Shown here: piece after piece, positions 9,890 to 61,700 of the stretch
Position numbering within the stretch: position 1 is the first letter of the stretch
How the letters are laid out: each line of letters begins with the position of its first letter
Assembly: GCA_963402885.1 (NCBI GenBank)
Contig: OY727096.1
Span: 11,017,820 to 11,081,819, forward strand
Origin: Antedon bifida
Taxonomy: Eukaryota; Echinodermata; Crinoidea; Comatulida; Antedonidae
Length of the DNA stretch: 64,000 nt
Direction: 5' to 3'
Made by a program: the position numbers and the translations under genes
Notes under the pieces: generated by a model
Database searches by the model: none
What the model was told of the DNA's origin: nothing
Seen by the model: only the letters and a program-made list of their open reading frames with translations

Positions 9890-10346
9890 AACTACACACT
9901 GTTCTATAAGACGTGTGAGCAGCGTAGAGTGAATGAAGAAATGCACACTCTATCGTTGATGTTACCCGGCTTACTGAGTCGCCACGTATACATTCAGTAA
10001 CATCTAGTTTAATTTGCATAAACTTTTCCACCTGCATTGATTACGTAACTATGAATTGAAGCTCTTTAAGACAAACGTCTTAATTGTTTCTATTTTTTTC
10101 TAGTTTGTTATTCTCAATAAGTTCAATATAAGTCTCTCTCAAGTACTTTAAGAAATTAAAATATCACGGTACAGTTACCAGAGGTCATTAGGACCTACTG
10201 TATTGTTATTAAATATCTTGCCTTGGCCACAAATCCGTCATTACTACACATTGGAGTGGACGTCATGTAAATTAGTAATTTGCATAAACTGAAAACTAAG
10301 GCAATGCCCGACGGATGAAGACAATTTTATAGGTTGGAAAAAAACG
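9890..10346. promoter_or_regulatory. Shared upstream region of two head-to-head LDLa genes
   Basis: The two start codons are 457 bases apart and point away from each other, so this interval must hold both 5' UTRs and probably both promoters. No clear TATA box was found. From 10291 on, it is part of a 320-bp tandem duplication. A bidirectional promoter is an inference from spacing alone. Confidence 0.45.
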
Positions 10347-10930
10347 ATGTTTGAAACATGGGTATTGTTATACTTTATTGTAACTTTCAGTATTTTTATT
10401 CCGTCAAATCAGGAGGTAAGAAATCACATTTTGTTTTAATGGTTTTGTGACACAAGATAATCCTTAAATAACTAGGCCTAAGAGGCTACACGTCACCAGT
10501 GTCCTAGGCTCAAGCTTACTGTATGGAAGCACATCCGATAGGACAAGCCAACCAAGCCCAGTGGCATATCTATAATTTTTGGACCCCGAGATTTTACCGG
10601 AGAAATATAAGAAAACTAAGGCAATGCCCGACGGATGAAGACAATTTTATAGGTTGGAAAAAAACGATGTTTGAAACATGGGTATTGTTATACTTTATTG
10701 TAACTTTCAGTATTTTTATTCCGTCAAATCAGGAGGTAAGAAATCACATTTTGTTTTAATGGTTTTGTGACACAAGATAATCCTTAAATAACTAGGCCTA
10801 AGAGGCTACACGTCACCAGTGTCCTAGGCTCAAGCTTACTGTATGGAAGCACATCCGATAGGACAAGCCAACCAAGCCCAGTGGCATATCTATAATTTTT
10901 GGACCCCGAGATTTTACCGGAGAAATATGC
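10291..10930 (+). repeat. Perfect 320-bp tandem duplication carrying a signal-peptide exon
   Basis: 10291-10610 and 10611-10930 match at every position except the last two bases. Each unit holds the 5' leader, the start codon (10347 or 10667), the 23-codon signal-peptide exon, its donor site (after 10415 or 10735) and about 190 bases of intron. The identity suggests a very recent duplication or an assembly duplication. Confidence 0.9.
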
Positions 10931-13900
10931 ATGAAGGATATATGATATTTGCGCATTCAGAAGCCTCAGATAGTAAATTAACTTTTGAGCCATACTTACT
11001 GATAATCCAAATGCTATATTCCAGTTTGTTAAATTAGAGAGAGGAAAGGCATCACACAAGAATAACCTAAACACAGAAGAAAATATTGAAGGTATTGGTA
11101 TTATTTTACTTCCCCGTGTAATTTGTCTTCTCAGTGCAGTAAACGCACTTTCTCACTCATTTTTTCCCCTCTCGTCTTCATTTTATACAATATTGTATTA
11201 ACATGCATATAACCTAGCATTATTGTGTCCGTCAAGAGATGAGATCAATTTCATCTAGCTACGAGTATATTCCTTATGGCCAGGAATTGATGTGATTAGC
11301 TTTTCACGATGCGCAATTAATAATTACGCAGTCTACACGCGATTTCATGAAATCACGTTTGTAATCATATCTTCATAAGTATATGTATCATAATTAAACC
11401 GAATCATGGCCATGAGTGCGCATATTGTTGTGCACTGCTCGTTAAACGTTATTGCGCACTCTTTCTGCACGATTTCAGTTTTACAACCTTTCTTTAGCAT
11501 CATCATCATATTTTATACACTTTTCAACTTGAAATCGCGTTATACGAGCACTTCAAAATGACAGGCACGTGTAGGCTGAAAAATGGTGAAAATAAGCTTA
11601 TTTTTAAAATTAATATAGACCCTATTTTTCATTTCATTTTGCTGTGTGTCTTTCAAGTGTATGTATCATATTTATGATTTATGAAAATAAGAGAGAAAAG
11701 GTTGATGACGTCATCATTAATTACATATTAAAGATGTATTGTCCCTTTGTCAAATTCCAAAAAAAAAAAAGATTTCGAAAAAAAGTCGGTCATTTTGAAG
11801 TATCATAATAGTTACTAACTTTCACCAAAAATTAGTCGAAAAAAAAATCATTTAACTGAAATACAGACGTTTTTTGGTGCAAAAAATAACTTTGACTTCC
11901 AGTCAAAGTTTTCGATCAAAACATATCTCATAATGCAACGTGCTTATTTGGCTACTCTGTATGCATAATCATAAAACTTCCTCGCGATCTGTGTGAAAAC
12001 ACCTTCTCAACAGTGACGAGTTGTAAACAATCTTAATTAGCATCATGCATAATGTATACTCATGGTTTTAAATCTTTATTTACTTTCACTCGCGACGATT
12101 TTCCAGACGAAACTTAATCAAATTAATTTAGCTGTTAATTACGTAAAATTTTTGTTTTTGGCTCGAATTTTCAACTTAAAGTGAATAACTTTAATAGTAC
12201 TTTGATATGGCCAATTTAAATTTAGAATATTTTGATCTTCATTTTTTTGTGTTTCATGGGACAATACATCTTTAAATAAGACATTTTAATTTCGGCAATC
12301 AAACAAACTATGACACTTTCTTAGATTGGATTGGATTTTTTTAAATGTCAAAGTAAAACATTATGATCCATTGCGGTATGTAATAATCTATCTGCACCAA
12401 AGTGTTTATCTTTCTTTAACTTTTAGGTTTGTATAATGGCTCGGTGGTCTGTGTTCGCGTCTTATAGCATCTGAGGTACCGAGATCGAGTCTCAAATTGG
12501 CAAACGAAACGAAATAATATTTTATTTGGTTATATCTGTATTTTTTGTTCAATTTTATTTCTTAGTGTATAAATTATACGCTTGATTTATAATGAAATCT
12601 AGAAAAAAAATGTTGTCTTTATTATTATGTAACGAGGGTGGTTTATGAATTTTGATCGGGCTGTTTTATTCAAGTGACTCGATGTGATACCGGATATTGT
12701 ATTTGCGCTACCAAGATCCTATCTTTATCTTTCATATATTATAAATAATTAAAGATCATGACAAAATCAATGCATATAGCCTAGTATAATTCGTCTTATT
12801 GACAAATTCAATCTAGTTTTAGGTTAATGTTATGATATATTTGGAATCCTCAGTATCACAATGGCGGCCATTTTGTTTTTCACATTTTAAGGGTGAAGAT
12901 CTAAAAATTGAGCCGGGTAAACAGCAGATTTGGATTAAGCACCCCAAAATTACCCTAAAACACATATTTTTTCGCTTTTAACACGAAATGCCTACAGCAT
13001 CTTATTAGAGTGGAAATATGAATATCTGGACTAGTCTAATATACGTTTGACGTCATTTCATTTATTTATGTTGGATTTTCAGGGCGCTTATTCCATGGAT
13101 GCATTAACAGTTTTCGATGCCATGATGGATCATGTATTCTTAAACATTTTGTTTGTGATGGTATTCCTGGAGACTGCTTACATAACGAAGTGAGTTTTGT
13201 TTTCTAGATTTTCACCATTGATTGTTTGTTTAGGTCATCTTTTTTTTTTGTAAAACTGCTGTATATCAACAGTAGGCTATTGCTTAATACATAAAAGACA
13301 ATAGAGACAATGATTAGCGTTTACATTTAGCCACATCAAAAGAGTCATAATTTTACTATTTAAATATCAAATACCACAGTTAAATAATCAGATTATTTTA
13401 AATATGACGTCAAGGCCTACGTAGGCCTACTATATTTTTGTAGGCTGCTACATATTGTGTATTTGACGTTTTCGGCATGACCGCCATATCAGTGCGTGAA
13501 ATAAATGCATTCATTCATTCATTACGGGTAGACCTATGGATATTGTCATTCATCCAGGTAGTACGTTTAAAAAGAGATAAATATAATCCAGGATTAGATT
13601 TATCTCTTTCTAAACATTTATTCACTGGAAACATCATTCTGCCTGTACCAAACGTCATATAATTAATTTCTTGTATTTTCAGGATGAACATAATTGCCAT
13701 CAACACACGTGTGACGTAGATGAGTTTAAGTGTAACAATGGTAAATGTATTTCCTCTCATTGGCACTGTGATGGAGTCTTTGATTGTGATGACCATGAAG
13801 ACGAGGGTCATGAATGCAAACATTCGACATGTGAAGAAGATGAATTTCAATGTCAGTTAGGTGAGTCCGATCCAGTTTGAACATTATTTTAAAATTATTT

Positions 13901-39890: not shown

Positions 39891-42017
39891 TTATTAGTAA
39901 TAGGGTGTGTTATACATGTAAGTGTTATTCCATTGTAATATATTGTTTGTGTTTTCAATAAAGCAACGTTGGGACAAATACGCACCTTCTACAGCACTAT
40001 TGCTGGCCGCCAGTCGAGTTATTAGAAATTCGTATACAGTACCGTACAGACACTTGCATCTTATTTTAGTATTTAAAACTCATTTTAAATTGATTTATAT
40101 ATCTGAAGTTATAAAATAATGTAGGATATTAAATAAATAAATTGCTGTTATCATGTTATTGTAAATAAATTAGAAGTTAACAAATTATGATTGCGAACAC
40201 TACTAGTTACTTTACTAATTAATTAATATACAATAACAATACTGTATATATATGAACTTTATTGAAAAAATATATTATTTCTTAATAATTGGCTTATATA
40301 TTATATTAATATACAATACAAACACCACAATGTATTTTATTGACTTTATTAAACATATATATCATTTAGAACAGTTAAAATAAGTAATCATTGATTCGCC
40401 ATTTTGTTTAAAAGAACGTATCGCATTCAATCTGTAAAAAAAGAGAATAAATTACATAATGTAGATTGTTATTTACGTCCGAGGTAAAGAAAACCTGTCC
40501 AAACAATGATAATCAAAGATTACAAACCAATGACAATCAAAGCTCACACAGCGTTCCATACAGATTACCGTTATTATTGAACTAGCGACCGCTTTGGTTG
40601 GTGGCCGCTTCGACTGTAATCCCTATTAGCTAGGCCTATCCTGTTACTTGTATGGCAAGTCTGATTATATCTGTATCTGTATATACAATAATAAATAATA
40701 AAATTAAAGACTTCATATTCAAAATGACACCATTATTTTTTATTCAGATAACAAACATGCCGATCCACAAAAACCTTTGTTATGCTTAGGCGTCCTAGCT
40801 AGCGAGGCCGATACACGGCGCTCCATGTAATCGCTCTATGCGCTACTGTGATGCGCAGGGTATGTTGATTTTTCGTCAGGTACCGTTTTGACAGTCATTC
40901 GTAACCAGATTAGTTACTTTCAAATAGTAAAATATTTACGGTGCAGTGTCCATATTGATAGTATATACAATTAATTAATCTATCTACCGGATTTCGTAAA
41001 AAAACGTGAAACATGCAGATCTCCGTGTTTGGCAGTGTTAATGGTATAAATTCCAAAGCTTAATTCTTTTAGAAACTGATGAAAATGAAGTTAAAAGTGA
41101 ATTTTTCACCTCGCAATTCCAGAATCGAATGTGTTTGATCAAAATAAAATTAACAGTAACGATACAAACGTGTTCATCCGTGTCTATTGTGCATTGTATT
41201 CAGCCGCAGCGGTCAACTGTGAGGCGCTACCGCATTCGGTCAAAAAATCACTATAATAAAACAAAAATGCAACGCTTTTGTTACTCAGTCAACTGCTCTC
41301 ACATTTATTTGGTCAAACAAAATCAGAAATTCTTTTAAAAATGAATAAAACTTAAAGGACAACTTGACCGAGGACCATACTTTAACAACGTATTAGGGAT
41401 GTACAATGATTTCAGAACAATCGCGAGATTAAAGATAACGCCACACGCGCTCGCCGTACAGCCGTCGCCATCAATTGCTGTGACGTCAATGGTGCATCAC
41501 AAAATCTACTTAATGAGTTTTCACTGTTGTTAACATACAAGAGATAGTTACCGTCTTCAACTGCTAATTTGACCTGTATTAGGCTTAAATTTGCCAAAAT
41601 GTTTAGTCTGGTATTTTGAAGAAACACTTCAACATCCAGATAGGCAAAAGAAACAAGAAAAAAATTTAACATTTTTATTTTTTACGATTTATTTAAAAAG
41701 TGTGTTTACTAGAAATGTTCGCGCTTTATGAGTCCTTTAATACAACTATGTTAAGACAATTTGTCTTTTTGTGTATAAATGTATCGCCGAAAATGATCGT
41801 TTTTAGCCATGAACGATAAACAAATTGTACCCTCAGTCGACAATTGTATGAACTGTAATTTTTCGCTAAATTAATTACATAAAATTACGTTTTTAGTAAT
41901 TTATTTTTTATCAACATTGAAAATATCAATAAAATAGGTTATTAAATGGTTATAAAATAGATAAATTTGTTTATTTAACGGAATTTGGACAAAAGTTCAT
42001 TGCTCTAATTCGTGTAG

Positions 42018-42995
42018 TAATGATCAGTACAGAGAGACCATATGACTTGACGGTAATGATCAGTACAGAGAGACCATTATGACTTGACGGTAATGATCAG
42101 TACAGAGAGACCATATGACTTGACACGCAAGAGGAAACATTCCACTGATGGGTGATTGTAGTAATGATCAGTACAGAGAGACCATATGACTTGACGGTAA
42201 TGATCAGTACAGAGAGACCATATGACTTGACACGCAAGAGGAAACATTCCACTGATGGGTGATTGTAGTAATGATCAGTACAGAGAGACAATATGACTTG
42301 ATGGTACACGCAAGAGGAAACGTTCCACTGATGGGTGATTGTAGTAATGATCAGTACAGAGAGACCATATGACTTGACACGCAAGAGGAAACATTCCACT
42401 GATGGGTGATTGTAGTAATGATCAGTACAGAGAGACAATATGACTTGACGGTAATGATCAGTACAGAGAGACCATATGACTTGACACGCAAGAGGAAACA
42501 TTCCACTGATGGGTGATTGTAGTAATGATCAGTACAGAGAGACCATATGACTTGACGGTAATGATCAGTACAGAGAGACCATATGACTTGACGGTAATGA
42601 TCAGTACAGAGAGACCATATGACTTGACACGCAAGAGGAAACGTTCCACTGATGGGTGATTGTAGTAATGATCAGTACAGAGAGACCATATGACTTGACG
42701 GTAATGATCAGTACAGAGAGACCATATGACTTGACACGCAAGAGGAAACATTCCACTGATGGGTGATTGTAGTAATGATCAGTACAGAGAGACAATATGA
42801 CTTGATGGTACACGCAAGAGGAAACGTTCCACTGTTGGGTGATTGTAGTAATGATCAGTACAGAGAGACAATATGACTTGATGGTACACGCAAGAGGAAA
42901 CGTTCCACTGTTGGGTGATTGTAGTAATGATCAGTACAGAGAGACAATATGACTTGACGGTACACGCAAGAGGAAACATTCCACTGATGGGTGAT
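42018..42995 (+). repeat. Composite minisatellite in the right inverted arm
   Basis: About 17 copies of a 35-base unit (GTAATGATCAGTACAGAGAG followed by ACCATATGACTTGAC) interspersed with about 10 copies of a second unit (ACGCAAGAGGAAACATTCCA followed by CTGATGGGTGATTGTA). The left arm has single copies of both, near 39.14-39.21 kb on the opposite strand. Units pair in higher-order blocks of one to three A units plus one B unit. Long open frames across the array are by-products of the repetition. Confidence 0.95.
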
Positions 42996-43288
42996 TGGCG
43001 TCCACCAATCAAATAGCCAGAATCCAAAATCATTCAACCGTGAACTATGCCAATCGCGGAAAAGCTCAGCTTTGATTGGCTCACGATGACATCATATCAG
43101 AAAATGGTGGTTTTGTTTGAGCCTCACGGAATATTTTTGTTTCAAAAATGAAATAAATGAACATTATTTATGGTACAGTATGTGTGATTTTTCTCGAAAC
43201 TATTTGAATAATAAAGGCCTCATATCAAAAAAAATTTTTTTGAATAGGGTAAGGTCACTGGACCGTTCGAAGGTTTGAGTAAACAATC

Positions 43289-46090: not shown

Positions 46091-46221
46091 TATATACATC
46101 TTATTTATTGACAATCGATTTTTCTCACTGCAGTATTTGCCAAGAGGGATATTTTTTTAGGTTTTGAATGGAGGCCTGAATGTCTCGGGCACTCATTAAT
46201 TGTGTCATGCAACTACCTGGG

Positions 46222-46735
46222 TAAAAAAACGATCGGGATTCCCGGCGGGATCCCGTTGGGATCCCGGTGGGATTTTACGAAAATCCCACCGGGAATTATG
46301 GTCGGGATTCCCGGTGGGATCCCGGTGCGATCCCGCTTGAATTTAAGAAGAAAACGATCGGGATTTCCGCGGGATCCCGTTGGTATCCCGTTGGGATCCC
46401 GCTTGAATTTAAAAAGAAAACGATCGGGATTTTCGCGGGATCCTGCCGGGATTTGCGTAAAATTCCACTGGGATTTATGGTCGGGATTCCCGGTGCGATT
46501 CCGCTTGAATTTAAAATGAAAACGATCGGGATTCCCAGCGGTATCCCGCTGGGATCCTTCCTCATTAAAAAAAAATCGATCGGGATCCCGGTGGGATTTG
46601 TGTAAAATCCCACCAGGATCCCGATGGGATTTGCGTAAAATCCCACCGGGATCCCGATGGGATGTGGGTAATTTGTGATATTTCCCATCGGGATTCAGGC
46701 GGGATCCCGGCGGGAATCCCGATCGGTTTTTTTGG
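46222..46735. repeat. Left subterminal array of GGGATCCC-type palindromes
   Basis: Over 500 bases built from variants of CGGGATCCCG, CGGGATTCCCG and CCCACCGGGAT, with spacers such as TTGAATTTAAAAAGAAAACG before CGATCGGGAT. The spacer resembles the right terminus of the element (AAAAATGAAAGTGGGATCCC), linking the two ends. Open frames on both strands here are by-products of the repeat. Confidence 0.85.
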
Positions 46736-46816
46736 GGGTATTCTCGCTGTGATAAAAAATCATAAGTCGACATATTGCATTTTAAATTATCTTTTAATCA
46801 CATTAACATCTCGTTA

Positions 46817-49800
46817 TTAATACTTCAAAGTATATTTGTTATTTTTGATTGCTCTAATTTTATCATTTAGTTTTTTGACAATTTCGGTCCACACCTGCTC
46901 CCTTTGCTCAACTTGAACTTCTTGGTATCGTTTGAATATGTGAGCTGAAATAAAACAATACGCCGGTTAAATCACAGAATGTTGTGTTGTGTTTTTATTT
47001 ACAGTGTTTAATTATTGTCCATGCATACAAGACGCATTACAATGACACAGTGGGCCTATAGTGCTGCAACAGACGAGTTGTTTTAAAGAAACATTAAACA
47101 TAAAGTTTCCACAGGTGGGGCTTGGAAGGGGATTGCTGCTTTCGTAACCAAAGATACTGTTAATTTACTCACTTCTAAGCGCCCGTCTTTTAACCTTGGC
47201 CATCGCCACCTTGTCCCGGCCAAATCCATAAATGCTTAAAGTGGCGCATTCTTCTTTGCAAACAACCAGTTCAAGAAGGTTAAGGGCCAGCTTCATTATG
47301 TCGGTTGCCGACATTTCAGCCAGTGTCAGCCTCTCCCTGCTGACACTGACCCCAAATTTCGCATCACCCATGTATGTAAATTCTTGTTATAAACAAAACA
47401 AAAAAAAAAAGTTATGATGTGTTTATATTCCAAGAACATTACAACGAGGAATGTTTTTAAAAAGTATTTATAAATCCTTGTAGATCACATGTATAAATTG
47501 TTTCCAATCGATTAGATCAACATAATAAATAACACACCAAATTCACGGCCGGCTAAACAATTATTTTCAAAACCTACCACTAGTATCAGAATCCTCTTGG
47601 GAAGAAGAAGGAGGAGGAGGAAGAGGACATGATGATGGTGGCGATTTCGCCGCATGCCTGCTTTCACCAGATATATGATCAGCCACTACAAATAAGTTAA
47701 TATAGAATACGGTATAATTAATGATAATTGTATGTAACTACTGTGTAGCAGCTCAGTGCGTCAGAAAGCCGAGTAATTGGTCAGCTTGCCCTACTACTCT
47801 GACTAAGTTACATTATACTAAACGACGTAAGTGTGAAAACATTTTAAAAAATATATTAAAGATTGCAACTTTATATGAAGGAGAGACATCAAATTATTAC
47901 AAATTATATCTTATGTACTCACATCGTCCATCATCCGCAACGGCGGCAGTCTTCAAATTCTGAAACGTTTAAAAATTCAAATTCTGAAAAATATGTTCAG
48001 TTTCACAGATATTACACAAGCTAACATATATTACTTTAAATTGTGTCTCATCTACCGTACCTTGTACAAGAACTTGACAGCTTGCCTGTCCTGCATCAAC
48101 GACATAATAGTTTGTTGATTTTGTTCTATGCGGTTGAGCTTCAAAAATCAAATTAAATTACATATAATTATTAATTGATAACTATAGACATTTATTGTGC
48201 ATAACGGTTTACAAACAAATGAACAATCGGAGTTGAGGGATACTGATGCTTAAAGCTCAGGTACAGGCATGAATTTTAAATATAATATCTGGTTAATTGT
48301 AAATAAATCAAATATTTGTAACAGAAATCAGGACGAAAAAACATGAATATGGTCAAATACAAAATAAATTATAAAATATAAAAACCAGGAAGACTTTTTT
48401 TCAGTGATTATGTAGTTTAACCTAATGTAATAACATGTCTGGTGACTCCCTAGAAGGTGAAAAAAGATGGTGGATATACGGTGGATAATTTTTGCTATAG
48501 CATGAAAATAAAAATCTGAAGTTGAATAAAAAAAACCAGAAATGTAAAATTCAAGTTTTATTACCTATATTTAGTCATCTGATAACATTTGTTACCACAC
48601 CGTTTATTTTTCATAGCTTTTTAAAATGCCTCTCTATTTACAAAATGTGTGTACAAAAGAATAGAGATTTTACTGTGTAATTTGAACTATAAGAACTGAT
48701 AAGAAAGTGCTTATTTTCAACAAGCTCGTGTAATACAAATAAAATTCAAAAAATGTATGATCAATAGACATTTTTTGCTCGCACCTGGCCTTTAAATTGA
48801 ACTATTCAACTTTGGGCTAAATACATTTTTAAAACATATTTTACCTTATCTATTATGTCCTGATAATTCCCTCCATCTACCAAACTTAATGTTGAGGACA
48901 CTGCATATTGTTCCCTCGCTTTTTCTTTTTGCTTCTTCTCAGCTGCCACGGCTTTTTTTACCGTGATTGCCTGTAATTATATTCGAGCAACAATTACGTA
49001 GGTCACGTTAATCAAGAACAATGGTAGATTTAAAATCATGAAAGCTGGATATCATAAAATAATAATAATATCCTGGATAATATAAAAACAAGTCGCAATG
49101 ACTATTTATTCGATGCGTTTATGGTAACTTGTATAAATATATAAATAAAGTTCCACTCGGTATCGTAAATTATGCATCACAATTGCTTCATTTAATGAGA
49201 AAAATTTACCTCTACTATCTTCTTTTTTTGTGGAACCGAAACGGTTGATGCGGCAGCCTGTAAATGAAATAAAACGGTCACACAACCAAAATATTTATTA
49301 ATAATTATTATCTAAAGGCAGTTGTTGTGATGTTATGTTTACAGTACTAACATCGGCATAGACTAGACGAATGCTAAATACAAAATTGCGTAGTTCACGT
49401 TAATCAAGAACAATGGTAGATTTAAATTCATGAAAGCTGGATATCATAACATAAATATAAAAATAAATATAAACAAAAATAATGCATGTGGCGATTTTGG
49501 GCGAGGGCGTTTATTTTTTTGGGTGTAATTAGTAACATGTATAATCAAATAATAAAGCCCTAGATATAAAAAACTATAACACAATCAATAACAAGAACTG
49601 GTAAAATACAGTAACAATTGTATCAAAATGCTGCCTATTAAAGTATTAAAAACAATTTGGCAAAAACAAAATGCAAAGTAAGTGGAAAATACTAAACACA
49701 ATGTACTTCTACGTTTTTCCTTTTTGAGGATTTCTTTTGTTGTATGGGTTCTGAAGCCTGAATCTGTAATTTAAAACAAAAACGTAATTATGCACCCTTA

Positions 49801-51216
49801 ATGTGAATGGCATGCACCCATGAAAGTTGGATTTTCACATGCCGTATTTGTTCGAATAAACTCCCAATAAAAAAAAACACATAGGTATGAAAAACTATAG
49901 TATAACACAATTAATATTAAGAAGTGATAAAATAATGTAAAATTGTATCAAAATGCTTGGTAAATTGTAGATCATGGAAGTCAAAGAATTCTGCTATGAA
50001 AGGTGTTTATTCGAATAAATACGGAACGATAGTTCCATTCGGTATCGTAAATTATTCATCACAATTGATTCATTCAATGAGAACAATTTACCTCTACTAT
50101 CTTCTTTGTTGGTGGAACCGAAACGGTTGATGCGGCAGCCTGTAAATGAAATAAAATGGTCACACAACCAAAACATGTTTATGTTTACAGTACTAAAATC
50201 GGCATATATAGACTATAAACACAATGAACCCTACCTTTTTCTTTGGTGGCATTAGTTCTAATGCTTTCTGTAAATAAATAAAAAAATATTTAATTTTCAC
50301 CGTTAATATGGCTTTCCCACATTAATATCATATTTTATTTGTATGACTATACATGAATATATAGGCATATACTATATGAACACTTTCTCTTTTTAAGAAA
50401 CTGTTAACTGCTAACTTCATGCAGCTTAAATGTATTCGATGTAGCCTAGGCTTAGGGCCTAGTGTATTATTCAATTTTTGTAGTTTAAAGTGTATCATTG
50501 TTTCATTTATTCTATTGATTGTAACTTTTTATCTGCTTTAATAATGATAGTAGTAGGCATAGGCCTAATTAGTATATGTATGTACTCGCCTTTTGCCCTT
50601 TCTGGATATGTGTCTCACTTTCCAGGACTTGGGAGACCAAATCTGGAAACTCTGGGCCAGAAAGTATTTTGGAGAATTTTTTCCGCATTGATTCATCTGC
50701 AAAAAATAGTATAGCCTAAAAGTAAAACTAAATGTTGGCAAACAGGTATACTTTTAAGGTTGAGAGAGTTATATAGGCCTAACTAGGCCCTATACCTACC
50801 TAGGGCCTAGGGTAGGCCTGGGCCCTAACCATTATTATTGGTAATTATAAATTTCAGTTGTCCTCCAGTGACGTTAAGTTAATTTAGGGCCTATTACTTT
50901 TAAAATCTTATTTAATAGGCTAGACCATATCATAAGTTTTATTAATAGGCCTATCACAAATTAATTTGTGTGTTACGGTTGTCGAACCTAAGGCTATACA
51001 ATGATATGAGTGCTGTTGGACCAAATAAATTAACTTACCGCCTATTTCTCCAATCAGTCCTGTCTGTATACCAAAACCTGGGCACTTTGCTTTAACACGG
51101 TCTCCTACTAAATAGTCATTCAATTCCCACCGTGGCTCTACAATATTCTCTATTTTGATAACATTACCCGTAACAGGATCGTCATTAATCCAAATCATTA
51201 ATGTGATTAGACCCAT
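46817..51216 (-). CDS. BEN-domain protein, putative DNA-binding partner of the transposase
   Basis: Twelve exons: 51039-51216, 50590-50696, 50235-50267, 50092-50139, 49713-49763, 49210-49257, 48845-48970, 48061-48138, 47923-47959, 47578-47685, 47173-47382 and 46817-46944, giving 383 aa. All phases agree if exon 2 uses a GC donor. The N-terminus (residues 1-95: VGDRVKAKCPGFGIQTGLIG) resembles a small chromatin-reader-like fold by composition only. The Lys-rich middle includes two near-identical 16-aa exons (AAASTVSVP...KKIVE). A helical stretch follows (LNRIEQNQQTIMSLMQDRQA), then a Ser/Pro linker. Residues 272-341 fit a BEN domain (FGVSVSRERLTLAEMS, SIYGFGRDKVAMAKVKRRAL). BEN domains bind DNA in animal and viral proteins. 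Being divergent from a transposase within shared termini, it probably plays the TnpA-like role; this is inference. Confidence 0.7.
48254..48791. mobile_element. 538-bp MITE with AGCTCAGGTACAGGC ends and TTAA target
   Basis: The ends AGCTCAGGTACAGGC and GCACCTGGCCT are inverted repeats bordered by TTAA (48250-48253, 48792-48795). It sits in a BEN-gene intron. A second copy in the opposite orientation is at 58422-59385. Confidence 0.8.
49130..50150 (-). repeat. Duplicated 48-base exon with flanking intron in the BEN gene
   Basis: 49.13-49.27 kb and 50.02-50.15 kb share the exon (49210-49257 and 50092-50139) and about 80 bases of adjoining intron (CGGTATCGTAAATTAT and onward). Intronic blocks at 49.0 and 49.38 kb (CACGTTAATCAAGAACAATG) are also duplicated, so the region grew by several local duplications. 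The exons differ by one small change (PPT versus PQK). Confidence 0.8.
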
Positions 51217-52542
51217 AATGATTAAACAAATTTACTAAAAAGATGATGATGAACAGACAACCGACGGGCGGAGAAGAAGAACAAGAGAAAAAAGAGGAGG
51301 ATCGACCGCCAAATGATTTGAAACTTACGCGCACGGACGGACGGACGGACGGACAGATGATACGGGTAATTTTACGCACCCTTTTTATTTTCATAATTTG
51401 TTTCTAAATTACTGGAATTTATCCTTAAAGTGAATTTGTTACCATATTTACCACCCGTCATGGATATTGAATATCACCCTTTTTCACACGATTTTTGAAA
51501 ATTATCTGAAGACGCCTCCGCCGCGAGCCGCCCCCTTGTTATGTTTGGTATGCCCCGGGCGACATGTCACGTATATACGGCGTGTGACGTGTCCGGCGGC
51601 TCCTATCGTCGTGTGCAAAAGATAAAACGAAGTGACGCTATACGATCTTTGGTCGTGTGACGTGCCAGCAGAGAGCGGAGAACGCTACACACGCTAGGCC
51701 TAGATGATGAATAATATGAAGAGCTAAACACTGTACACCTCAACAGGTCAGTAAAATACATGCATAGATTTACATGATGAGTCCTACATTTTATTTGGGA
51801 CGTGTAAACTTATAACAAGACCCATTCGCCTATAGCTAGCTAGTATAATAGGCCTATAGGCATATAGCCTAGCCCTATATTGGCTACATACATAGGCTAT
51901 ACTAGGCCCTAATAGGCTTTTTAGGCTAGCCTAGCCTATGTTGTATAGGCCTAGGCCTATAATAGGCCTAGCTAGGCCTAAGCTATCCTATATGTGTCAC
52001 ATTTCTTTTTTTTTAAAGCAAATAATATACATATAGGCCTATGTCTATCCGGAATGCCTAGCTATAGAATAGCCATATTGTATTAGTTTCTACTTATTAT
52101 AGGCCTACGTCAGTAAGCTAAATTTGGGCATGTCCTAATAATATTAAGAGCCTAGGCCTAGGCTAGGCCTAGTCAGGGCTTCCCTTTTGACATATTGTGC
52201 ACAAGCTTGCATCGTCTTTCAAATTTCGCGGTAATATGTTTGGATTTGAAAGAACTCTATTTAAATCAAGTAGTAAGTACTGATTTTTCAATATAGGCTA
52301 GGCCTAAAATATAACTTAACTTATATTATAATTAATAAGGCTTTATATTCTTTATAAAAATCAATCAATATTGTGTCATTGGGTCCGCATGCACCCCCCC
52401 CCCCCACCCCTAAATTTTACAAGGTGCCCTTTTTAGAGGTAATCATTTTTGCTATATAATTGCTTGCGTTTATCTTTGATTTGTTTTTAACATTTTATTA
52501 ATTTCGATACTGTAGGTAGTACTAGGCCTAGTAGTATGCAAC
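51217..52542. promoter_or_regulatory. Divergent promoter region between the BEN and transposase genes
   Basis: 1.3 kb between two outward-pointing start codons, so it must hold both 5' ends. It contains an (ACGG)n microsatellite near 51.34 kb, a GC-rich patch at 51.5-51.7 kb, a very dense cluster of TAGGCCTA words at 51.69-52.33 kb and a C-run near 52.39 kb. No TATA box or confirmed start site is visible. Confidence 0.5.
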
Positions 52543-55500
52543 ATGGATTCAAGTGATACCGCCACAACAGAAGAGCAATTTCTGGCAACACCGCAAAAGA
52601 GACGGCGTGTACTATCAAAACGTCATGGGTTTAACCCTAGACGTGCTCGATATTTGAAAGCAGTAATATTAGCTAAAAAAACACCTGGCCCCTTATTAAG
52701 GGAATCAATATTGACAAGTTCTTCGTCAAGCGAAAGTGAGTCTGATTTTGAATTAGACAGGAGTAGCTCCATTTTTTCATCACCAGAAAATGTCTCAAAT
52801 ACTGACGATAGTAGTAGTAGTGATAGTACCATCTCAAGTCGGCCTACCACCGATCCTTCGATCAGTAGTGACGCACCGACAGATGATGAGTACGACATCA
52901 TCGAAGGCGAGGAACCCGTCAATGGCAAACATCCTTTATTTGACGGTTGTCCTCAGACACATATTTCTCTATATACATCTTTAATGCTATTCGTTATCAA
53001 ACATTCACTTTCGGGAGAAGCATTCTCCGATCTTCTACATTTGATTGCCTCTATACTTCCACCAACGTGTGTCATCGCTAAGTCAACTTACATGGTCAAA
53101 GAGATTCTAAAGAAAAATACCCAATTTGAAACATCAACAACCCATTTTTACTGCGAAAACTGCTATAGAGAAGTGGAAACGTCATCCGATTCATGTAACT
53201 GTACGGACATGAGTGGGAAAGTGCTAGAGTACTTAAGCTTGGATGTCGAAAATCAGATTCAAAAACTTTTCCAAGGTAAGATGACGTTATTGTATACAAC
53301 CTTTTCAAATACACAGTGGTATTATAAAATAACAGACACGTTTTCTAACCTCTTTTTAAATAAATGTATTTTTCAGATCAACATTTTTGTGAGATGGTAA
53401 TGGCAAGACGTCGGTACGCGGAAGCTGGTGTGTGGAAGGACGTATGTGACGGTGAAGAGTACAGTAGAATTGTTCCAAGAGAACCGATGATGAATACTGT
53501 TCATCTGACATTCATGATGAATACTGGTTAGCATCATGGTAGTTATTTATGATATGAAATTAACAACTAACACATATCATCATCACTTTCCTGAGGGTAA
53601 TGTGGCTGCCGCCGCGATGTCGCGGTGGGGTCGAAGGGAAAAATCCCAATAAAGCGTTCAGTATGTCATAGCCTAAATGTGGATGACACATTTTTTTGAA
53701 ATGATTTTTTTTATGCAGATGGCGTGGCAGTTTTCAAATCATCAAATAAAGGAAGTCTCTGGCCTGTATACTTGGCAATTAATGAATTGCCAGTGCAATA
53801 TAGGTAGGTACATTAGTAATAACATGCAATATATTTTGTAAAATAAATTACTTATACTTTAAAAAATTACTTTACTGGTGTTTTTTTAGATGTCAGTGGG
53901 AGAGGATGAAGAGGGGGTGGGCGATTGTTGGATCGCCTAAATTTCAAATGTTAATGCAAAATATAAGACATACCGGTAGGTTATAATTAACCTGTTCTGG
54001 AATGATCCACCAATACCGTACTATTTACACATTTCAGATTTGCAAGACGATATATAATACCATGTCTTCTGCACTGCCAAGCCGAAAAGCCAAGTATGAC
54101 GACATACTTGCGATCACTTATTGACGTTCTGTTGCGGTTTAGTAGAGGTTCGTATTTTTTTTTTAATGTTCAAAATACTGTAACGTACAGGGCCGTAGCC
54201 AGGGTCTGTCAAAGGGGGGGGGGGGGCTTCGGACAAATAGGTAGTATTTGAGTTGAGTACGTATCGGCTGGTGGCCTATAAAAAAAATCGGATGTTATAA
54301 TGTAAACTACAGTACATGATTCTATAGAAAGTATAGTGTAATATATTAATATTCACTATAATGCTCTATGATGATGATACACTATATTTCATAAACATAA
54401 ATACTATAATAACTGCAGCGTTCAATTTTTTTATGTACGTCGGAAGAAGGCTATAACAACAATAACATGTTACATCCAGGGGCATCCAGGTACCAAAAAT
54501 ACGTATTTATATTTCAGCTGAAAATCTGCAATTCATTAGCAACTCTTTGAAATTTACAGACACGTATCGCTCGACGTACCCTCATACAGGAGGGAAGAAG
54601 TTAGTTTATTTTACATCTCCCTGGTTAGAGTTATTCACGAACGAGTTTACGATTTTTTCAATTTACGAACAACCTTATGTACTGTGGGAGATGAGGATGA
54701 GGTATTGGGCATGTCGGGGATGGGGGTTCGCTGTAAAGGGGGAAGGGGATTAAAATAAATATAATAAAACCATAACAACTTTCCTGGCTAAATATTTATA
54801 TGATACTTGTACACTGATGATTCAATCGCAGGAATTAAAATCATGACGTGCTATGGAGAAAAACAAGTAAAAGGGCATCTACTGGCATCGTGTTTAGACT
54901 TACCGGCCAGAGCAATGGTGTCTAATATGAAACAATTTAATGGTCGGTTTGGCTGTTCACTTTGTTTAGACGAGGGTATGACAAGACCAAATGCCCCACT
55001 TCACAGACACTATCCGTTCACTGACAACAATGAACATCGGTCACATCAAACTATCATTCAAGACGCCAGAACTGCTGCCGTAACACGCAAGGCTGTGAGT
55101 TATTTTATTATTATTATTATTCTGCTCCATAACGCCGAATAACAATTTATTTGAAAATAAATTTTTTTTAAAATCATTTTATATCAAAGTTTTCGCTTTT
55201 CAATAATCAGTTAAAATCAGTGAGTAGTCGCCCACGAAAAACGTTAAACGCTATCTTTACCCAAAGACGCTCCCAGACGTTTATTTTCAGTGGTTTTTGA
55301 GACTGCGCAGAATGATTTTTGAACTGACAGACCCAGTGCATTGTACTCTGCCCGTTGCTCCTTGAAACACATGCCGTGTTTCAACGCTTGTCCATGCTTG
55401 TAGTATGGAGAAACCCGGAAGCTTGCATTACGGACCTTTTAGTTCGAGTCGTTGATTTGTTCATTAATTATTATGTTTTGCTGAGGGTTTCCTAAAATTT

Positions 55501-58351
55501 AAGGTAAATTATAATTGCTGGTAGTTTATGTATTTTGGTCTTCATTTCCGTACGTTCGTCATTGATTTCTGAAAAATTACGGACGTTTCCCTTTTTAGTG
55601 ATACTTAACAAAATAGCTAGCCTTCAAATCATCCACTCTAGGCTAGGCCTAGTCTACCCACCAACTCAGCTGTGCTGAAGGTATATCAGTAGTAGTCCTA
55701 CTAACCAGACTAGCCATAAATATTATTGGTATCAGCGACCTTGGGGTTATAAGTGTTTACATATATTTAAATTCGCTTCGTACCGCGTACCAGAAAGGAA
55801 ATGCGTGAACGTGACGATTGTAAACTTCCGCAATGAACTCGCTCGGTCGTCAACAATAACATGGAATTCACTGCACTCTGTTACCATAGTGATCTTGAGA
55901 AAAAAATATTGTAACATGTTACAATATTTTTTTACAGATGCCATGACTACCAAGTAGAATTAGGTCATGAAATCCTTTGTGGTACCGCTAGATATAACAG
56001 TTGTAAACGGCTACTGTTATTCTGAGACAACAATCAAATTGTCTCAGTGTTATTGTAGACTTTTTTTTATTGATTGTGTAAAGTTATTGTACAATGCCTA
56101 TACAATCACAATTTATAGCTCCATTATTTAATTGATATATTTTCATACTTTCAGGTCAGAGGAATAAAGGGAGCATGCCCTTTGGTAGCTTTGAGCTATG
56201 TTGATTTATCATGTGTATTTCCAATTGACTGGATGCATTCCTGCTTGTTAGGAGTTACCAAATCCATGTTGAACTTGTGGCTTGGAAAAGACCACAAGGC
56301 AAAGAAGTTTTATATTGGTTCTAAGGTAAAACATATTTAAAAGAAAATTTCATTTGAAATTGCACATACTTCTTTTATAAACACAAATTATGTAGATTTA
56401 ATTCCAGTGAGCTTCTAAACAATCATTGTTTGAATAATTTAGCTAATTTGTCACTTGTGTTCTAACTGATAACTGTTGAATATGCATTTAGATTACACAC
56501 AATACTATACTGTTTATTTAGTCCTTTTTATATTGTTATTAGCAATTTTTAATGTTTCATATTCTGATACACCTAATTTAATTATAATAATAAATATAAA
56601 TTGAATGTTAATGTAGATTGATCTTATGAATACAAGATTTATGAAGATAAAGTTACCCGATTTTATTGCTCGTAGTCAAAGAAGGTTGGAGGAAAGCCAG
56701 CACTGGAAAGGTAATAAAATTCTTTTTCATTTTTTTCCAGTAGTCTATACTGTTTATATACAGAGTATGACGTGCACCATTTTTATTTCCTTAAGTTGAA
56801 TATGGTATGATCAGACAAAACACATCAAAAGCAAATGTTGAAAATATTACCAATGTAACCTTCAATCATTTTGCGACCTTCAACTGGATTGCATGTTTCA
56901 TAAATTGTAGCCGTTTTTTCAGGGTGTCTAGAAAACTCAGAGCTCAGATATATCTGAGTTTTCTAGATCTAGAAAACTCAGATATATCCAAGTTTTCTAG
57001 ACACCTGTTTTTCCATGATTATGTGACTTTTGCGTTGTTATTACAGCTACAGAGTACCGTGAATGGTTACTTCACTTTTCAGTACCTGTGTTAAGAGGCA
57101 TATTGGAACCGGATATTTTCATCCACTATTGCCTATTAGTGTCTGGATTGTCTCTGCTTGTTCAAGAACGCATCACATCAGCAGACCTCTCATATGCCAA
57201 CATTCTTCTGAATGATTTTTGTCAAATTTTTCCAACTATATACGGTAAATGCAACTGCATATTTATTACAATTTTTCAAACCATTCAATGATTGAGAATA
57301 CATAAATATGATTTCTATACTCTCAGCCTGATGACGTGCACATTTGACAACTTTTGTATCTAGTTAATAAACATGATTGTCATATTGTTTGTAGAAATGA
57401 ACAATGAGTATAATCACATTAAATGAATACGGTATATGCCTTTTCCCTCGGCAGGTGAAACAAGACAGACAATGAATATTCACACATTACGACACATGCC
57501 ATACTTTGTTAAACTGTATGGCCCACTTTTCCATTTTTCTTGCTTTGGGTTCGAGTCAATGAATGCTCACCTCAAAAGTATGTTTCATGGCACAAGATAT
57601 GTGAATAGCCAGGTATACATTCATTATTATATGTACAATTATATATAGGTGCTTGAAAGCTAAATAATAATAATAAGAAATAATGCTAATGCTTATTTTA
57701 CTTTTTAATACAGTAATAAATAATGTTCTTGGATTTCAGATTTCATTCGCAGTACAAATGACAAAGGCCCTTCCTGACTTAGTGAGAAGTTTATCAGAGG
57801 AAACAAATAACAATGACATGAAGAAGCTTTTTAGTAAACTGTCATCAAAACTAGCAACAGAGGAAAATCAAGCTGTTGCCAATGGCGTTATTGGCAAATT
57901 TCAAAGATTGCCAAATATTGCTAACTACTTTGAACAACCACAAAATATCCGTTTCACAAAGAGTTTTTCTAAGTACAAAATCGGTAAACATTGCTACACT
58001 TCTAAAACCACTAGCACAACAAAACGAACACAAAATTATTCTATTGTATACAAAGATTCAGATTCATTGAATTTTGGACAAATTATTTGTTTTCTGATGT
58101 CTGAAAATGAAACCCCTTTTGCAATTGTCCAAAAATACATTTCTAATCAGTCTCTAATTGCACCAACTCGCATTCAAAACCCAACCCTTAACAGTTACAC
58201 ACACAGACAACTTTGTAATCATATGGCAATTGTAACCCCAGGTAATAATATCTTGCTTCCTCTTACAGAAATCTGTAAGAAGTGTGTATTTATTGAAACA
58301 GATGATGGCATGTATATGTCATATCCACCAAATCTGCTTGAACACAATTGA
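52543..58351 (+). CDS. CACTA-like (Transposase_21-type) DDE transposase
   Basis: Ten exons, all GT-AG and in phase: 52543-53275, 53377-53526, 53719-53803, 54038-54147, 54832-55094, 56155-56325, 56617-56710, 57047-57244, 57455-57612 and 57740-58351, giving 857 aa. An acidic Ser-rich N-terminus leads to a Cys cluster (YCENCYREVETSSDSCNC). The RNase H-like core follows: NTDGVAVFKSS (D295), SLWPVYLAINELP, SCLDLPARAMV (D382), a CxxC...HxH zinc site (FGCSLCLDEG...LHRHYPF), FPIDWMHSCLLGV and CFGFESMNAHLK (E635). These match the animal relatives of plant TNP2/En-Spm transposases in order and wording. No stop or frameshift was found in the assembled exons, so the gene may be functional. It diverges from the BEN gene; part of its last exon is copied into a MITE downstream. 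Confidence 0.82.
55900..55933. repeat. Perfect 34-bp palindrome in a transposase intron
   Basis: Seven A, then TATTGTAACATGTTACAATA, then seven T, in the intron between exons 54832-55094 and 56155-56325. It would form a cruciform or RNA hairpin. Flanks show no obvious target duplication. Confidence 0.85.
56922..57006. repeat. 85-bp nested hairpin just upstream of a transposase exon
   Basis: The outer arms AGGGTGTCTAGAAAACT and AGTTTTCTAGACACCT enclose further inverted copies of CTAGAAAACTCAGATATAT. It ends about 40 bases before the acceptor of exon 57047-57244, in the branch-point zone. Confidence 0.8.
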
Positions 58352-58421
58352 ATATTGAATCTCTAATCAAATTCAATGTTTTATTCTGATTGTTGATTAC
58401 ATTTTGATTCAAAAGCTTTAA

Positions 58422-59385
58422 AGGCCAGGTGCGGGCAAAAAATTTCTATTGATCATACATTCCAATAATTATCGATCTATAGTTTCCCCTATGTTTCATA
58501 ATTTTTGGGATTTTATTTGTGTTACACGAGCTTGTTGAAAATAAGCACTTTCTTATCAGTGATTTCATTCGCAGTACAAATGACAAAGGCCCTTCCTGAC
58601 TTAGTGAGAAGTTTAACAGAGGAAACAAATAACAATGACATGAAGAAGCTTTTTAGTAAACTGTCATCAAAACTAGCAACAGAGGAAAATCAAGCTGTTG
58701 CCAATGGCGTTATTGGCAAATTTCAAAGATTGCCAAATATTGCTAACTACTTTGAACAACCACAAAATATCCGTTTCACAAAGAGTTTTTCTAAGTACAA
58801 AATCGGTAAACATTGCTACACTTCTAAAACCACTAGCACAACAAAACGAACACAAAATTATTCTATTGTATACAAAGATTCAGATTCATTGAATTTTGGA
58901 CAAATTATTTGTTTTCTGATGTCTGAAAATGAAACCCCTTTTCAAATTACACAGTAAAATCTCTATTCTTTTGTACACAAATTTTGTAAATAGAGAGGCA
59001 TTTTAAAAAGCTATGAAAACTAAACAGTGTGGTAAAAAATGTTATCAGATGACTAAATATAGGTAATATAACTTGAATTTTACATTTCTGGTATTTTTAT
59101 TCAACTTCAGATTTTTATTTTCATGCTATAGCAGAAATTATCCACTGTATATCCACCATCTTTTTTTCACCTTCTAGGGAGTCACCAGACATGTTATTAC
59201 ATTAGGTTAACTACCTAACTACTGAAAAAAAGTCTTCCTAGTTTTTATGGCAGAATTTTGCCAAATTTTGTATTTGACCATATTAAGGGAAATTCATGTT
59301 TTTTTGTCTTGATTTCATTACAAATATTTGATTTATGTACAATTAACCAGATATTACATTTAAAATTCATGCCTGTACCTGAGCT
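58422..59385. mobile_element. MITE carrying a captured transposase exon fragment
   Basis: The ends AGGCCAGGTGCGGGC and GCCTGTACCTGAGCT are bordered by TTAA (58418-58421, 59386-59389). It is an inverted copy of the 48254-48791 MITE but 426 bases longer. Most of the extra length is 382 bases copied from the transposase last exon. It inserted 70 bases after the transposase stop codon. Confidence 0.8.
58561..58942 (+). pseudogene. Copied fragment of the transposase last exon
   Basis: Identical to 57739-58120 apart from one base noticed (a Ser codon changed to Thr). It starts at the exact 5' border of the exon and stops mid-exon, and lies within the MITE. It lacks the C-terminal 77 codons and any start, so it is not a gene. 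The near-identity marks a very recent event. Confidence 0.9.
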
Positions 59386-59389
59386 TTAA

Positions 59390-60860
59390 ATGTGCACAGG
59401 AATCAATCATAAAAACCAATGGAATTTATCATGTATGGTATGAAAAGTAATTGGAAAAAATGGTCTTTGAACACACAGGTTATTACACACATTTGTTATC
59501 AATCTATTATTCTACTGACATTTCTCTGCTTCATGGAAATTTGAAAGTTTGGTATATTGCATTGTTATTTTCAAACTAATTTTAAATAGGCCTACAAAAT
59601 TGTTTATACTGTATTGTAATATACAATTTCCAATAAACAATCTGGATCAGTATTACTGTATGGATTTGTGTTTGCTAGGATAATAAGATTGATTCGATAA
59701 TAATGACTTGTCAAGTTGTTGTTTCTACAATTTTTATTAATTGGCTAACCAAGATGGAATACTATTATAATGAATATTGCGCTTTTGGTTTCCTTTACAT
59801 TAATTCATTATCAGGAGATCTGATCAAAGTGACGCTATGCTGTATAATCTTTCATCAATTAACCATTATCATTCATTTAGTTGCTATATAAACAATTATG
59901 TCCGTCTAACAAAAATTATTGTTCAAGATGAAACATACTGGAATGGGTTTTTTTGCCAAGTCACCGACCAAAAGCTTGGAGAGAATAATAAGTACAGTAC
60001 TTACCTACTGCTGTGAGGCATACAAAGAAAAGCCGACGAGATCATGTGAAATCGTCAATGAACTCGACTCTTTCTGAACCACTGCTGTCGATGTTGATTA
60101 CCAAATTAGTATAAAAATAAGTAACTGGGTTGTTTATCCCAGGACAGCTATCATCATCATTTATTGCACAGGTTAAATTGATTTTGGGAATTCCAAAAAT
60201 ATAAATTTTGAGTGTATTTAAGCCAATTACTTTTTTATTTTGATTTAAATTTATTTTTCATATGACACCAATGATGATAACTGTTTCGATCCTCAGTTAG
60301 GGAGGTGGCTATTGATCGGATCTCCTGCACAACAATTAACATGCATTGTCTATGCAGGCGTGCATTGCACTCATCAGCTAGGAAACCAATAGCGTAATAC
60401 CCTCAACATATTAAAGGAACTCAACTCAACAATTAATTAAAACTTGTAAACGTTATGAAACATAGTAAATATAAAAGAGTTAACTCAAAAACTTGTTAAT
60501 AAAATGGATGTTAAATAGAATGAGATGACATAAACTACTCGCTCATCGTAAGTGATCAAAGAAGCCACGGCCATGATGCCGGGTATCCTCCTTTTCCGAA
60601 ATCGGCGGCTCTTATCTGATCATTTACGATGTATTAAAACAGACTATAAAATATCGCAAAACCAACAAAAATCTGATGATTGAGTGGGTGGCACACTGGA
60701 TTTTATTGATCTATAAAAATAGAAAATGTGAATGCGCGTTTAAAAGTGGGAGTATTTTGAGGGATGGGGTTTTCCCCGACTCGCACATCTTTGTGTGTCC
60801 AGGGGTTTTGTTTGTTTATATAGTGTAGTGTTTTGTGTTTTGAGGGGGCTGTGTGATCTT
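59390..60860. other. Right-hand non-coding part of the CACTA-like element
   Basis: No exon supported. Holds an AATAAA near 59.63 kb that could serve the transposase transcript and an inverted repeat at about 60546-60632 (CATCGTAAGTGATCA versus TGATCATTTACGATG). Otherwise AT-rich. Confidence 0.4.
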
Positions 60861-60862
60861 TG

Positions 60863-61600
60863 TCCCTCTTGAGTGGGATGGTACTGGGATTTTATCCCAC
60901 TTGAGTGGGATTTGATAAAGTAGTGGGATGGTACTGGAATGGAGCTGGGATTTTGTCCCTCTTGAGTGGGATGGTACTGGGATTTTATCCCACTTGAGTG
61001 GGATTTGATAAAGGAGTGGGATGGTACTGGGATTTTATCCCACTTGAGTGGGATTTGATAAAGTAGTGGGATGGTACTGGGATGGAGCTGGGATTTTGTC
61101 CCTCTTGAGTGGGATGGTACTGGGATTTTATCCCACTTGAGTGGGATTTGATAAAGTAGTGGGATGGTACTGGAATGGAGCTGGGATTTTGTCCCTCTTG
61201 AGTGGGATGGTACTGGGATTTTATCCCACTTGAGTGGGATTTGATAAAGTAGTGGGATGGTACTGGGATGGAGCTGGGATTTTGTCCCTCTTGAGTGGGA
61301 TTTTACAAAGGAGTGGGATGGTACTGGGATTTTATCCCACTTGAGTGGGATTTGATAAAGTAGTGGTATTTAATACTGGGATTTTATTCATCCCAGTAGG
61401 ATAATTTGAATCCCACTGGGATTTCATATTATCCCAGTGAGATAAAACAATCCCACTGGGATATATCTATCCCAGTGGGATCCCACTGGGATTTTTCACT
61501 CATCCTAGAAAATCCCACTGTGTCAATATAAAATCCCAGTGGGATAACCATATCCCAGTGGGATCCCCTGGGATCCCACTGGGATCCCACTTTCATTTTT
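60863..61600. repeat. Right subterminal array of TGGGATCCCA-type repeats
   Basis: The outer 250 bases are variants of CCCAGTGGGAT and GGGATCCCACTGGGAT. The inner 500 bases are direct repeats built from GGGATGGTACTGGGATTTTA, CCCACTTGAGTGGGAT and TTGATAAAG. It shares the GGGATCCC core with the left array of the same element but has T/A where the left one has G/C around it. Confidence 0.85.
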
Positions 61601-61700
61601 ACTAGGGTATCACCGTAAGGATAGCCTTCAGGGCTACACATGACTCCTCATAAGGATAGCCAAGGCGTATAAATGGCTTATGCCTAGATAGTTAATAATT

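What the first reader, a model, noticed from the sequence alone, without database searches (positions are those of the whole stretch)
46216..61607. Two-gene CACTA-like transposon pairing a BEN-domain protein with a DDE transposase
Seen: divergent genes with fully open, phase-matched exons; a BEN-like domain in one; DGV, CLDLPA and GFE motifs in the other; imperfect inverted termini with TA on both flanks. Known: plant En/Spm uses a DNA-binding TnpA and a transposase TnpD. Inferred: an animal version in which a BEN protein serves as the binding subunit, in a copy that may still be competent.
Basis: partly seen in the sequence, partly recalled or inferred. Interest (0 to 1): 0.9.

Follow-up and report, generated by a model that had tools for sequence, protein, structure and literature searches.

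The report
Two-gene animal CACTA-type transposon
This is a complete jumping gene that moved very recently in an animal, probably a feather star, and carries both a cutting enzyme related in fold to the antibody-gene recombinase RAG1 and a second protein resembling a BEN-type DNA binder, so it offers a clean system for asking how such enzymes gain a partner that may find the ends.

The parts
46216..61607 (.). whole transposon, 15,392 bp
   Evidence: ends fixed by comparison with three other full-length copies with unrelated flanks
46214..46215 (.). left target-site duplication TA
61608..61609 (.). right target-site duplication TA
46216..46234 (+). left terminal stretch; the window copy has T at the third base where the other three copies have C
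61589..61607 (-). right terminal stretch, reads CCCTAGTAAAAATG inward
46235..46735 (.). left subterminal array of GGGATCCC-type palindromes
   Evidence: 8 GGGATCCC in the left 545 bp, 4 in the right 768 bp, 0 in the other 62.7 kb of the window
60859..61588 (.). right subterminal array (ATCCCAGTGGGAT and GGGATCCC units)
46817..51216 (-). BEN-like partner gene, 12 exons (51039-51216, 50590-50696, 50235-50267, 50092-50139, 49713-49763, 49210-49257, 48845-48970, 48061-48138, 47923-47959, 47578-47685, 47173-47382, 46817-46944), 383 aa
   Evidence: P0013 of Antedon mediterranea aligns along the spliced model
46817..47382 (-). BEN-like C-terminal domain, split by one intron
   Evidence: inferred from relatives; no Pfam match for this copy
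48061..48138 (-). exon predicted to be helical, possibly for oligomerization
   Evidence: the homologous stretch of P0013 is a long helix in a low-confidence model; inference
52543..58351 (+). transposase gene, 10 exons (52543-53275, 53377-53526, 53719-53803, 54038-54147, 54832-55094, 56155-56325, 56617-56710, 57047-57244, 57455-57612, 57740-58351), 857 aa
48250..48796 (-). nested TTAA-flanked repeat in an intron of the BEN-like gene (passenger)
58417..59389 (+). second copy of that repeat; 58561-58948 copies 388 bp from the start of the last transposase exon

Best explanation
An autonomous, recently active CACTA-type cut-and-paste transposon of the animal (TRC) branch with two head-to-head genes. 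Shown: exact ends, 2-bp target duplications, four dispersed near-identical copies, an open DDE transposase gene, and a partner gene that recurs with the transposase in divergent families. Inferred: the partner, a BEN-like protein with a helical middle region, binds GGGATCCC palindromes as dimers at position 20 from each end and in the subterminal arrays and brings the ends together; the RAG1-like transposase then cuts at the CCC termini and inserts into a dinucleotide, mostly TA.
Against: No binding or mobility was measured. The window's own BEN-like domain has no Pfam BEN match; relatives reach only E 0.02 to 8.7e-4, below the cut-off; hhalign to BEND3 gives probability 13.5; in the profile search an unrelated methionine synthase scored as well as BEND3; the model of P0013 was poor and matched no BEN fold. 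8 of 20 BEN-like loci had no intron-type transposase within 20 kb, and 9 of 20 intron-type transposases had no BEN-like locus within 20 kb. Five of 10 further BEN-like loci showed no end in the 2.5 kb read. More distant transposases in the same genome had none listed nearby, so it is not shown to be needed by every CACTA element. The window copy has a changed third base at its left end and lacks about 1.1 kb that the other copies have.
Confidence: 0.72

Rival explanations
1. The partner is not an end-binding subunit but a chromatin or transcription regulator (for example a repressor or anti-silencing factor) that helps the element persist; the transposase alone finds and joins the ends.
For: Known BEN proteins are mainly chromatin and transcription factors (listing and passages). 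In C10b GGGATCCC also occurs inside the element near the start of the BEN-like gene. Distant transposases of the same genome had no BEN-like locus listed nearby.
Against: In the window GGGATCCC is found at the two ends and not in the internal 14 kb, and at one fixed distance from the terminus, as expected for a transposition site. The transposase could be its reader, which these data do not exclude.
Confidence: 0.2
2. The BEN-like gene is a captured host gene riding as a passenger, with no role in transposition.
For: Transposons capture genes (recalled). Host-type BEN exons exist in this genome (6 over the cut-off).
Against: It stays with the transposase in the same layout in families whose transposase exon hits are 29-59% identical; its frame is open in 4 of 4 window-family copies. 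A scallop protein (P0014, 34% over 56% of the query, N-terminal half only, no BEN-like domain in it) suggests the partner's first half is old.
Confidence: 0.06
3. The C-terminal domain is a different helical DNA-binding domain that only resembles BEN.
For: Sub-threshold matches only; no Pfam match for the window copy; no fold match.
Against: PF10523 is the best Pfam family for four relatives, two of them close to each other, and BEND3 was one of two hits of the profile among 177,635 PDB sequences, in register. Accepted BEN domains score as weakly against each other (BEND3 against BANP, E 0.66). The predicted order two strands then helices agrees.
Confidence: 0.15
4. A chance neighbourhood of a transposase and an unrelated gene, or an assembly artefact.
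For: None beyond the caution that one copy alone could mislead.
Against: Four copies with different flanks and target duplications.
Confidence: 0.01

Closest known systems
SmTRC1 and animal TRC elements of the CACTA superfamily (PMC1636069)
   Same: Transposase_21 transposase, CCC terminal core, 2-bp direct repeats at the flanks; the Tribolium end starts CCCTAGTA, as does the right end here (abstract and passages seen)
   Different: The SmTRC1 copy cloned there is about 4.7 kb with alternatively spliced transcripts; no BEN-like partner appears in the passages I saw
Plant En/Spm (TnpA + TnpD)
   Same: Two element proteins needed for transposition, TnpA binding DNA with TnpD (background passage); subterminal repeats (recalled)
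   Different: tnpA and tnpD are spliced from one transcription unit; CACTA ends and 3-bp target duplication, no BEN domain in TnpA (recalled)
RAG1/RAG2, ProtoRAG and Transib
   Different: 2-bp rather than 5-bp target duplication (5 bp recalled); CCC ends; the partner is BEN-like
BEN-domain proteins BANP, NACC1, BEND3, BEND6, Insensitive
   Same: Sub-threshold PF10523 match, similar order of elements; BEN domains bind DNA mainly by helix 5, two on a palindrome in solved complexes (passages of PMC11472053 and PMC10206803)
   Different: Those are host factors; here the gene lies in a transposon and its sequence falls below the family cut-off
Harbinger/Nuwa elements with a Myb/SANT DNA-binding partner
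   Same: Transposase plus a separate element-encoded DNA-binding protein (passage)
   Different: Different transposase superfamily and different binding domain

Membership tests
CACTA / En-Spm (CMC), animal TRC type | Transposase_21 transposase | tested here: met
   1.8e-8, 34.3 bits against a cut-off of 28.6
CACTA / En-Spm (CMC), animal TRC type | D-D-E with C(2)C and H(3-4)H between second D and E | tested here: met
   D295, D382, C401-C404, H611-H615, E635; signature as described in PMC12730594
CACTA / En-Spm (CMC), animal TRC type | CCC terminal core in animals | tested here: met
   7 of 8 ends listed; the window's own left end reads CCT
CACTA / En-Spm (CMC), animal TRC type | 2-3 bp target-site duplication | tested here: met
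   perfect 2 bp in 6 of 7 elements with both ends read (TA, TA, TA, TG; C13 TA; C10b AA); C7a is TA/TT
CACTA / En-Spm (CMC), animal TRC type | subterminal short repeats | tested here: met
En/Spm TnpA | sequence homology of the partner to TnpA | not tested
   no TnpA sequence was compared
BEN domain (PF10523) | score above the curated cut-off of 23.2 bits | tested here: not met
   window copy no match; relatives 15.5, 17.0, 19.9, 18.8 bits
BEN domain (PF10523) | BEN fold (two strands, five helices) | tested here: inconclusive
   two strands then four helices in the model of P0013, but mean pLDDT 42.9 and no fold match
BEN domain (PF10523) | sequence-specific DNA binding through helix 5 | not testable with these tools
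   only conservation of the corresponding columns was seen
Transib / ProtoRAG | RAG1-like catalytic core fold | tested here: met
   on the Solemya relative P0001, not on the window protein itself
Transib / ProtoRAG | 5-bp target duplication | tested here: not met
   2 bp

The most novel reading that the evidence does not exclude
A lineage of RAG1-fold CACTA transposons in echinoderms (and perhaps molluscs) works as a two-part machine in which a BEN-like protein is the dedicated end-recognition subunit, reading GGGATCCC exactly 20 bases from each cut site and in arrays behind it. It is mobile today, and BEN-type DNA binding would thereby be a component of a transposition system and not only of host chromatin factors.
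Probability: 0.58. Interest if true: 0.86.

Novelty: new variant of a known kind. Interest (0 to 1): 0.74.

Why it matters
Animal CACTA elements are known, but in the full-text searches that were answered I saw no report of one with a BEN-like partner (in some only 25 of 697 and 10 of 1,374 papers were listed; searches failed). The case gives natural copies that barely differ, both proteins, exact ends, and a predicted binding site at fixed spacing. How a RAG1-like transposase works with a separate DNA-binding partner becomes directly testable. It also raises the possibility, untested here, that some BEN genes descend from or fed into transposons.

Tried and rejected
Host-gene or chance-neighbour reading: rejected by four copies with unrelated flanks. 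An extra open stretch at about 53890-53980, in phase, was rejected as an exon because the Solemya relative aligns straight from exon 3 to the exon at 54038. RAG or Transib membership: rejected on the 2-bp target duplication. Searches that led nowhere: the BEN-like protein alone in 5.8 billion proteins; transposase and BEN-like queries in viral contigs and the transposase in prokaryote genomes; solved structures with the BEN-like protein; fold search of P0013. The genome-wide search for the end motif did not complete, so the number of copies and of non-autonomous derivatives is unknown. The protein-based genome counts are lower bounds. No bivalve genome could be read, so linkage there is untested. 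The organism is inferred: P0013 of Antedon mediterranea is 77-98% identical in seven exon hits to the C9:8503k gene, but none of the 11 large and 6 small contigs whose length I saw equals the 38,962,182 bases of P0013's contig, so a close relative is likelier than that record.

Full report
What is there. The window lies in an animal genome of 315.6 Mb in 27 contigs, at C9:11017820-11081819. The stretch 46216-61607 is one transposon. Splice-consistent assembly gives a plus-strand gene of 10 exons and 857 residues and a minus-strand gene of 12 exons and 383 residues, both without stops, all introns GT-AG but one GC-AG. The first matches Pfam DUF1258 (4.7e-11) and Transposase_21 (1.8e-8) over their cut-offs and is 50% identical over 90% of its length to a protein of the bivalve Solemya velum, which supports the exon model.

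The ends. A BEN-like query of the own genome found four near-identical loci; a transposase query found the same four. I fetched the three others with 24 kb each. All three match the window over the whole element and stop at the same bases; their flanks are unrelated. The left end reads CCCGGGTAAAAAAACG (window: CCT) and the right end, inward, CCCTAGTAAAAATG. The flanking dinucleotides are TA, TA, TA and TG, present on both sides in 4 of 4 copies. This is the animal CACTA pattern of DeMarco et al. (PMC1636069, abstract and passages): CCC core, 2-bp direct repeats.

Recency. Over about 15,340 aligned bases outside the end arrays, C1 and C10 differ by 4, C1 and C11 by 5, C10 and C11 by 1 substitution; the window copy differs from them by 51-55 of 14,073. 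The transposase frame is open in 3 of 4 copies (the C10 copy has a 4-bp insertion in exon 1), the BEN-like frame in 4 of 4. The window copy lacks about 1.1 kb near 60638 that is present in the alignment of the others. A second family (C13 and C7a) is 99.66% identical over 13.3 kb. In the window family nonsynonymous and synonymous differences are too few to test selection (5 and 3 in the transposase, 3 and 1-2 in the partner).

The pairing recurs. Three divergent loci (C10b, C13, C7a; the last two twins) hold both genes head-to-head, with transposase exon hits 29-59% and BEN-like exon hits 45-60% identical to the window's. Across the genome, one search gave 27 BEN-like hits, which I collapsed to 20 loci, and one search gave 117 transposase hits. 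12 of 20 BEN-like loci lie within 20 kb of an intron-type transposase, 9 of them head-to-head; of these 9, four are the window family and two the twins, so five families show it. 0 of 20 lie that near a control transposase; random placement gave a mean of 0.055 and a maximum of 2 in 2000 trials. The split into intron-type and control loci was mine. 8 of 20 BEN-like loci and 9 of 20 intron-type transposases had no partner within 20 kb; hit lists are lower bounds. Two of those BEN-like loci, C14:9596k and C7:24021k, are one-exon fragments without arrays in the 20 and 10 kb read. The C9:8503k gene has no transposase hit in 14.8 kb upstream but does have a terminus and subterminal repeats behind it.

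What the partner is. The window's own C-terminal domain has no Pfam BEN match. Those of C10b, C13, C9b and P0013 of Antedon mediterranea have BEN as best family at E 0.02, 0.0071, 8.7e-4 and 0.002, all below the cut-off. A profile of four domains had two hits in PDB at E up to 10: a methionine synthase (E 0.85) and BEND3 (E 0.86, in register). As a control, BEND3's BEN domain finds BANP's only at E 0.66, so such weakness is normal in this family. hhalign gave probability 13.5 with the right register. Structure prediction of P0013 gave no usable model, though the order strand, strand, helices is right. In the genome PF10523 was listed over its cut-off in six other exons and in none of the element genes. 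I therefore write BEN-like and not BEN.

The sites. GGGATCCC occurs 8 times in the left 545 bp and 4 times in the right 768 bp of the element and nowhere else in the 64 kb. In 8 of 8 ends (7 distinct, from four families) GGGAT begins at position 20 from the terminus, as GGGATCCC in 6. For the window and C13 families the termini came from copy comparison; for C10b and C9b I chose them by their likeness, with an AA duplication as independent support in C10b and a preceding TA in C9b. At 10 further BEN-like loci (2.5 kb each) an end with this spacing was found in 5, in 3 exactly and in 2 with one mismatch; the other 5 had none; the window outside the element had 0 in 96,000 strand-bases. BEN domains bind DNA mainly by helix 5, two on a palindrome in solved complexes (passages of PMC11472053 and PMC10206803); the corresponding columns, as I set them, are 14 of 21 invariant against 24 of 92 elsewhere.

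How it most likely works. Inferred: the BEN-like protein binds the palindromes as dimers, bridges the two arrays, and positions the transposase at the CCC ends; the transposase cuts and inserts into a dinucleotide, mostly TA. This is the role TnpA has in plant En/Spm (background, otherwise recalled), filled by a protein not known to be related.

Novelty. Full-text searches combining BEN domain with CACTA, transposase, EnSpm or domestication terms listed no such element; the listings show only 25 of 697 and 10 of 1,374 papers. The single paper holding BEN domain and CACTA mentions them in unrelated places. Three further searches failed. Repbase entries and most subscription papers were not searched. 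I rate it a new variant of a known kind.

Noticed in passing
window 48250-48796 and 58417-59389: Two inverted copies of a TTAA-flanked repeat lie inside the transposon; matches to both are in all three other copies, so they joined before the burst. The second copy carries 388 bp from the start of the last transposase exon.
   Followed up: partly
[not shown]
   Followed up: no
C9:8486001-8506000 (L022, L023): Upstream of the BEN-like gene are a 631-aa ORF that looks like a Penelope-type reverse transcriptase (my reading of the sequence) and LINE-like ORFs.
   Followed up: no
C10b (L020, L021), joined coordinates 4836-4896 and 12092-13572: Extra GGGATCCC sites near the start of the BEN-like gene, and a 109-bp tandem array with a GGGAT in most units behind the transposase.
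   Followed up: no
window 42017-42997: Tandem array with units of 36 to 254 bp.
   Followed up: no
window 10291-10928: Exact tandem duplication of a 320-bp unit.
   Followed up: no
G000 C7, C8, C10 and others: Several apparently intronless transposase relatives about 30% identical, some in equal-scoring pairs, with no BEN-like locus listed within 20 kb: perhaps another recently active CACTA-type group.
   Followed up: partly
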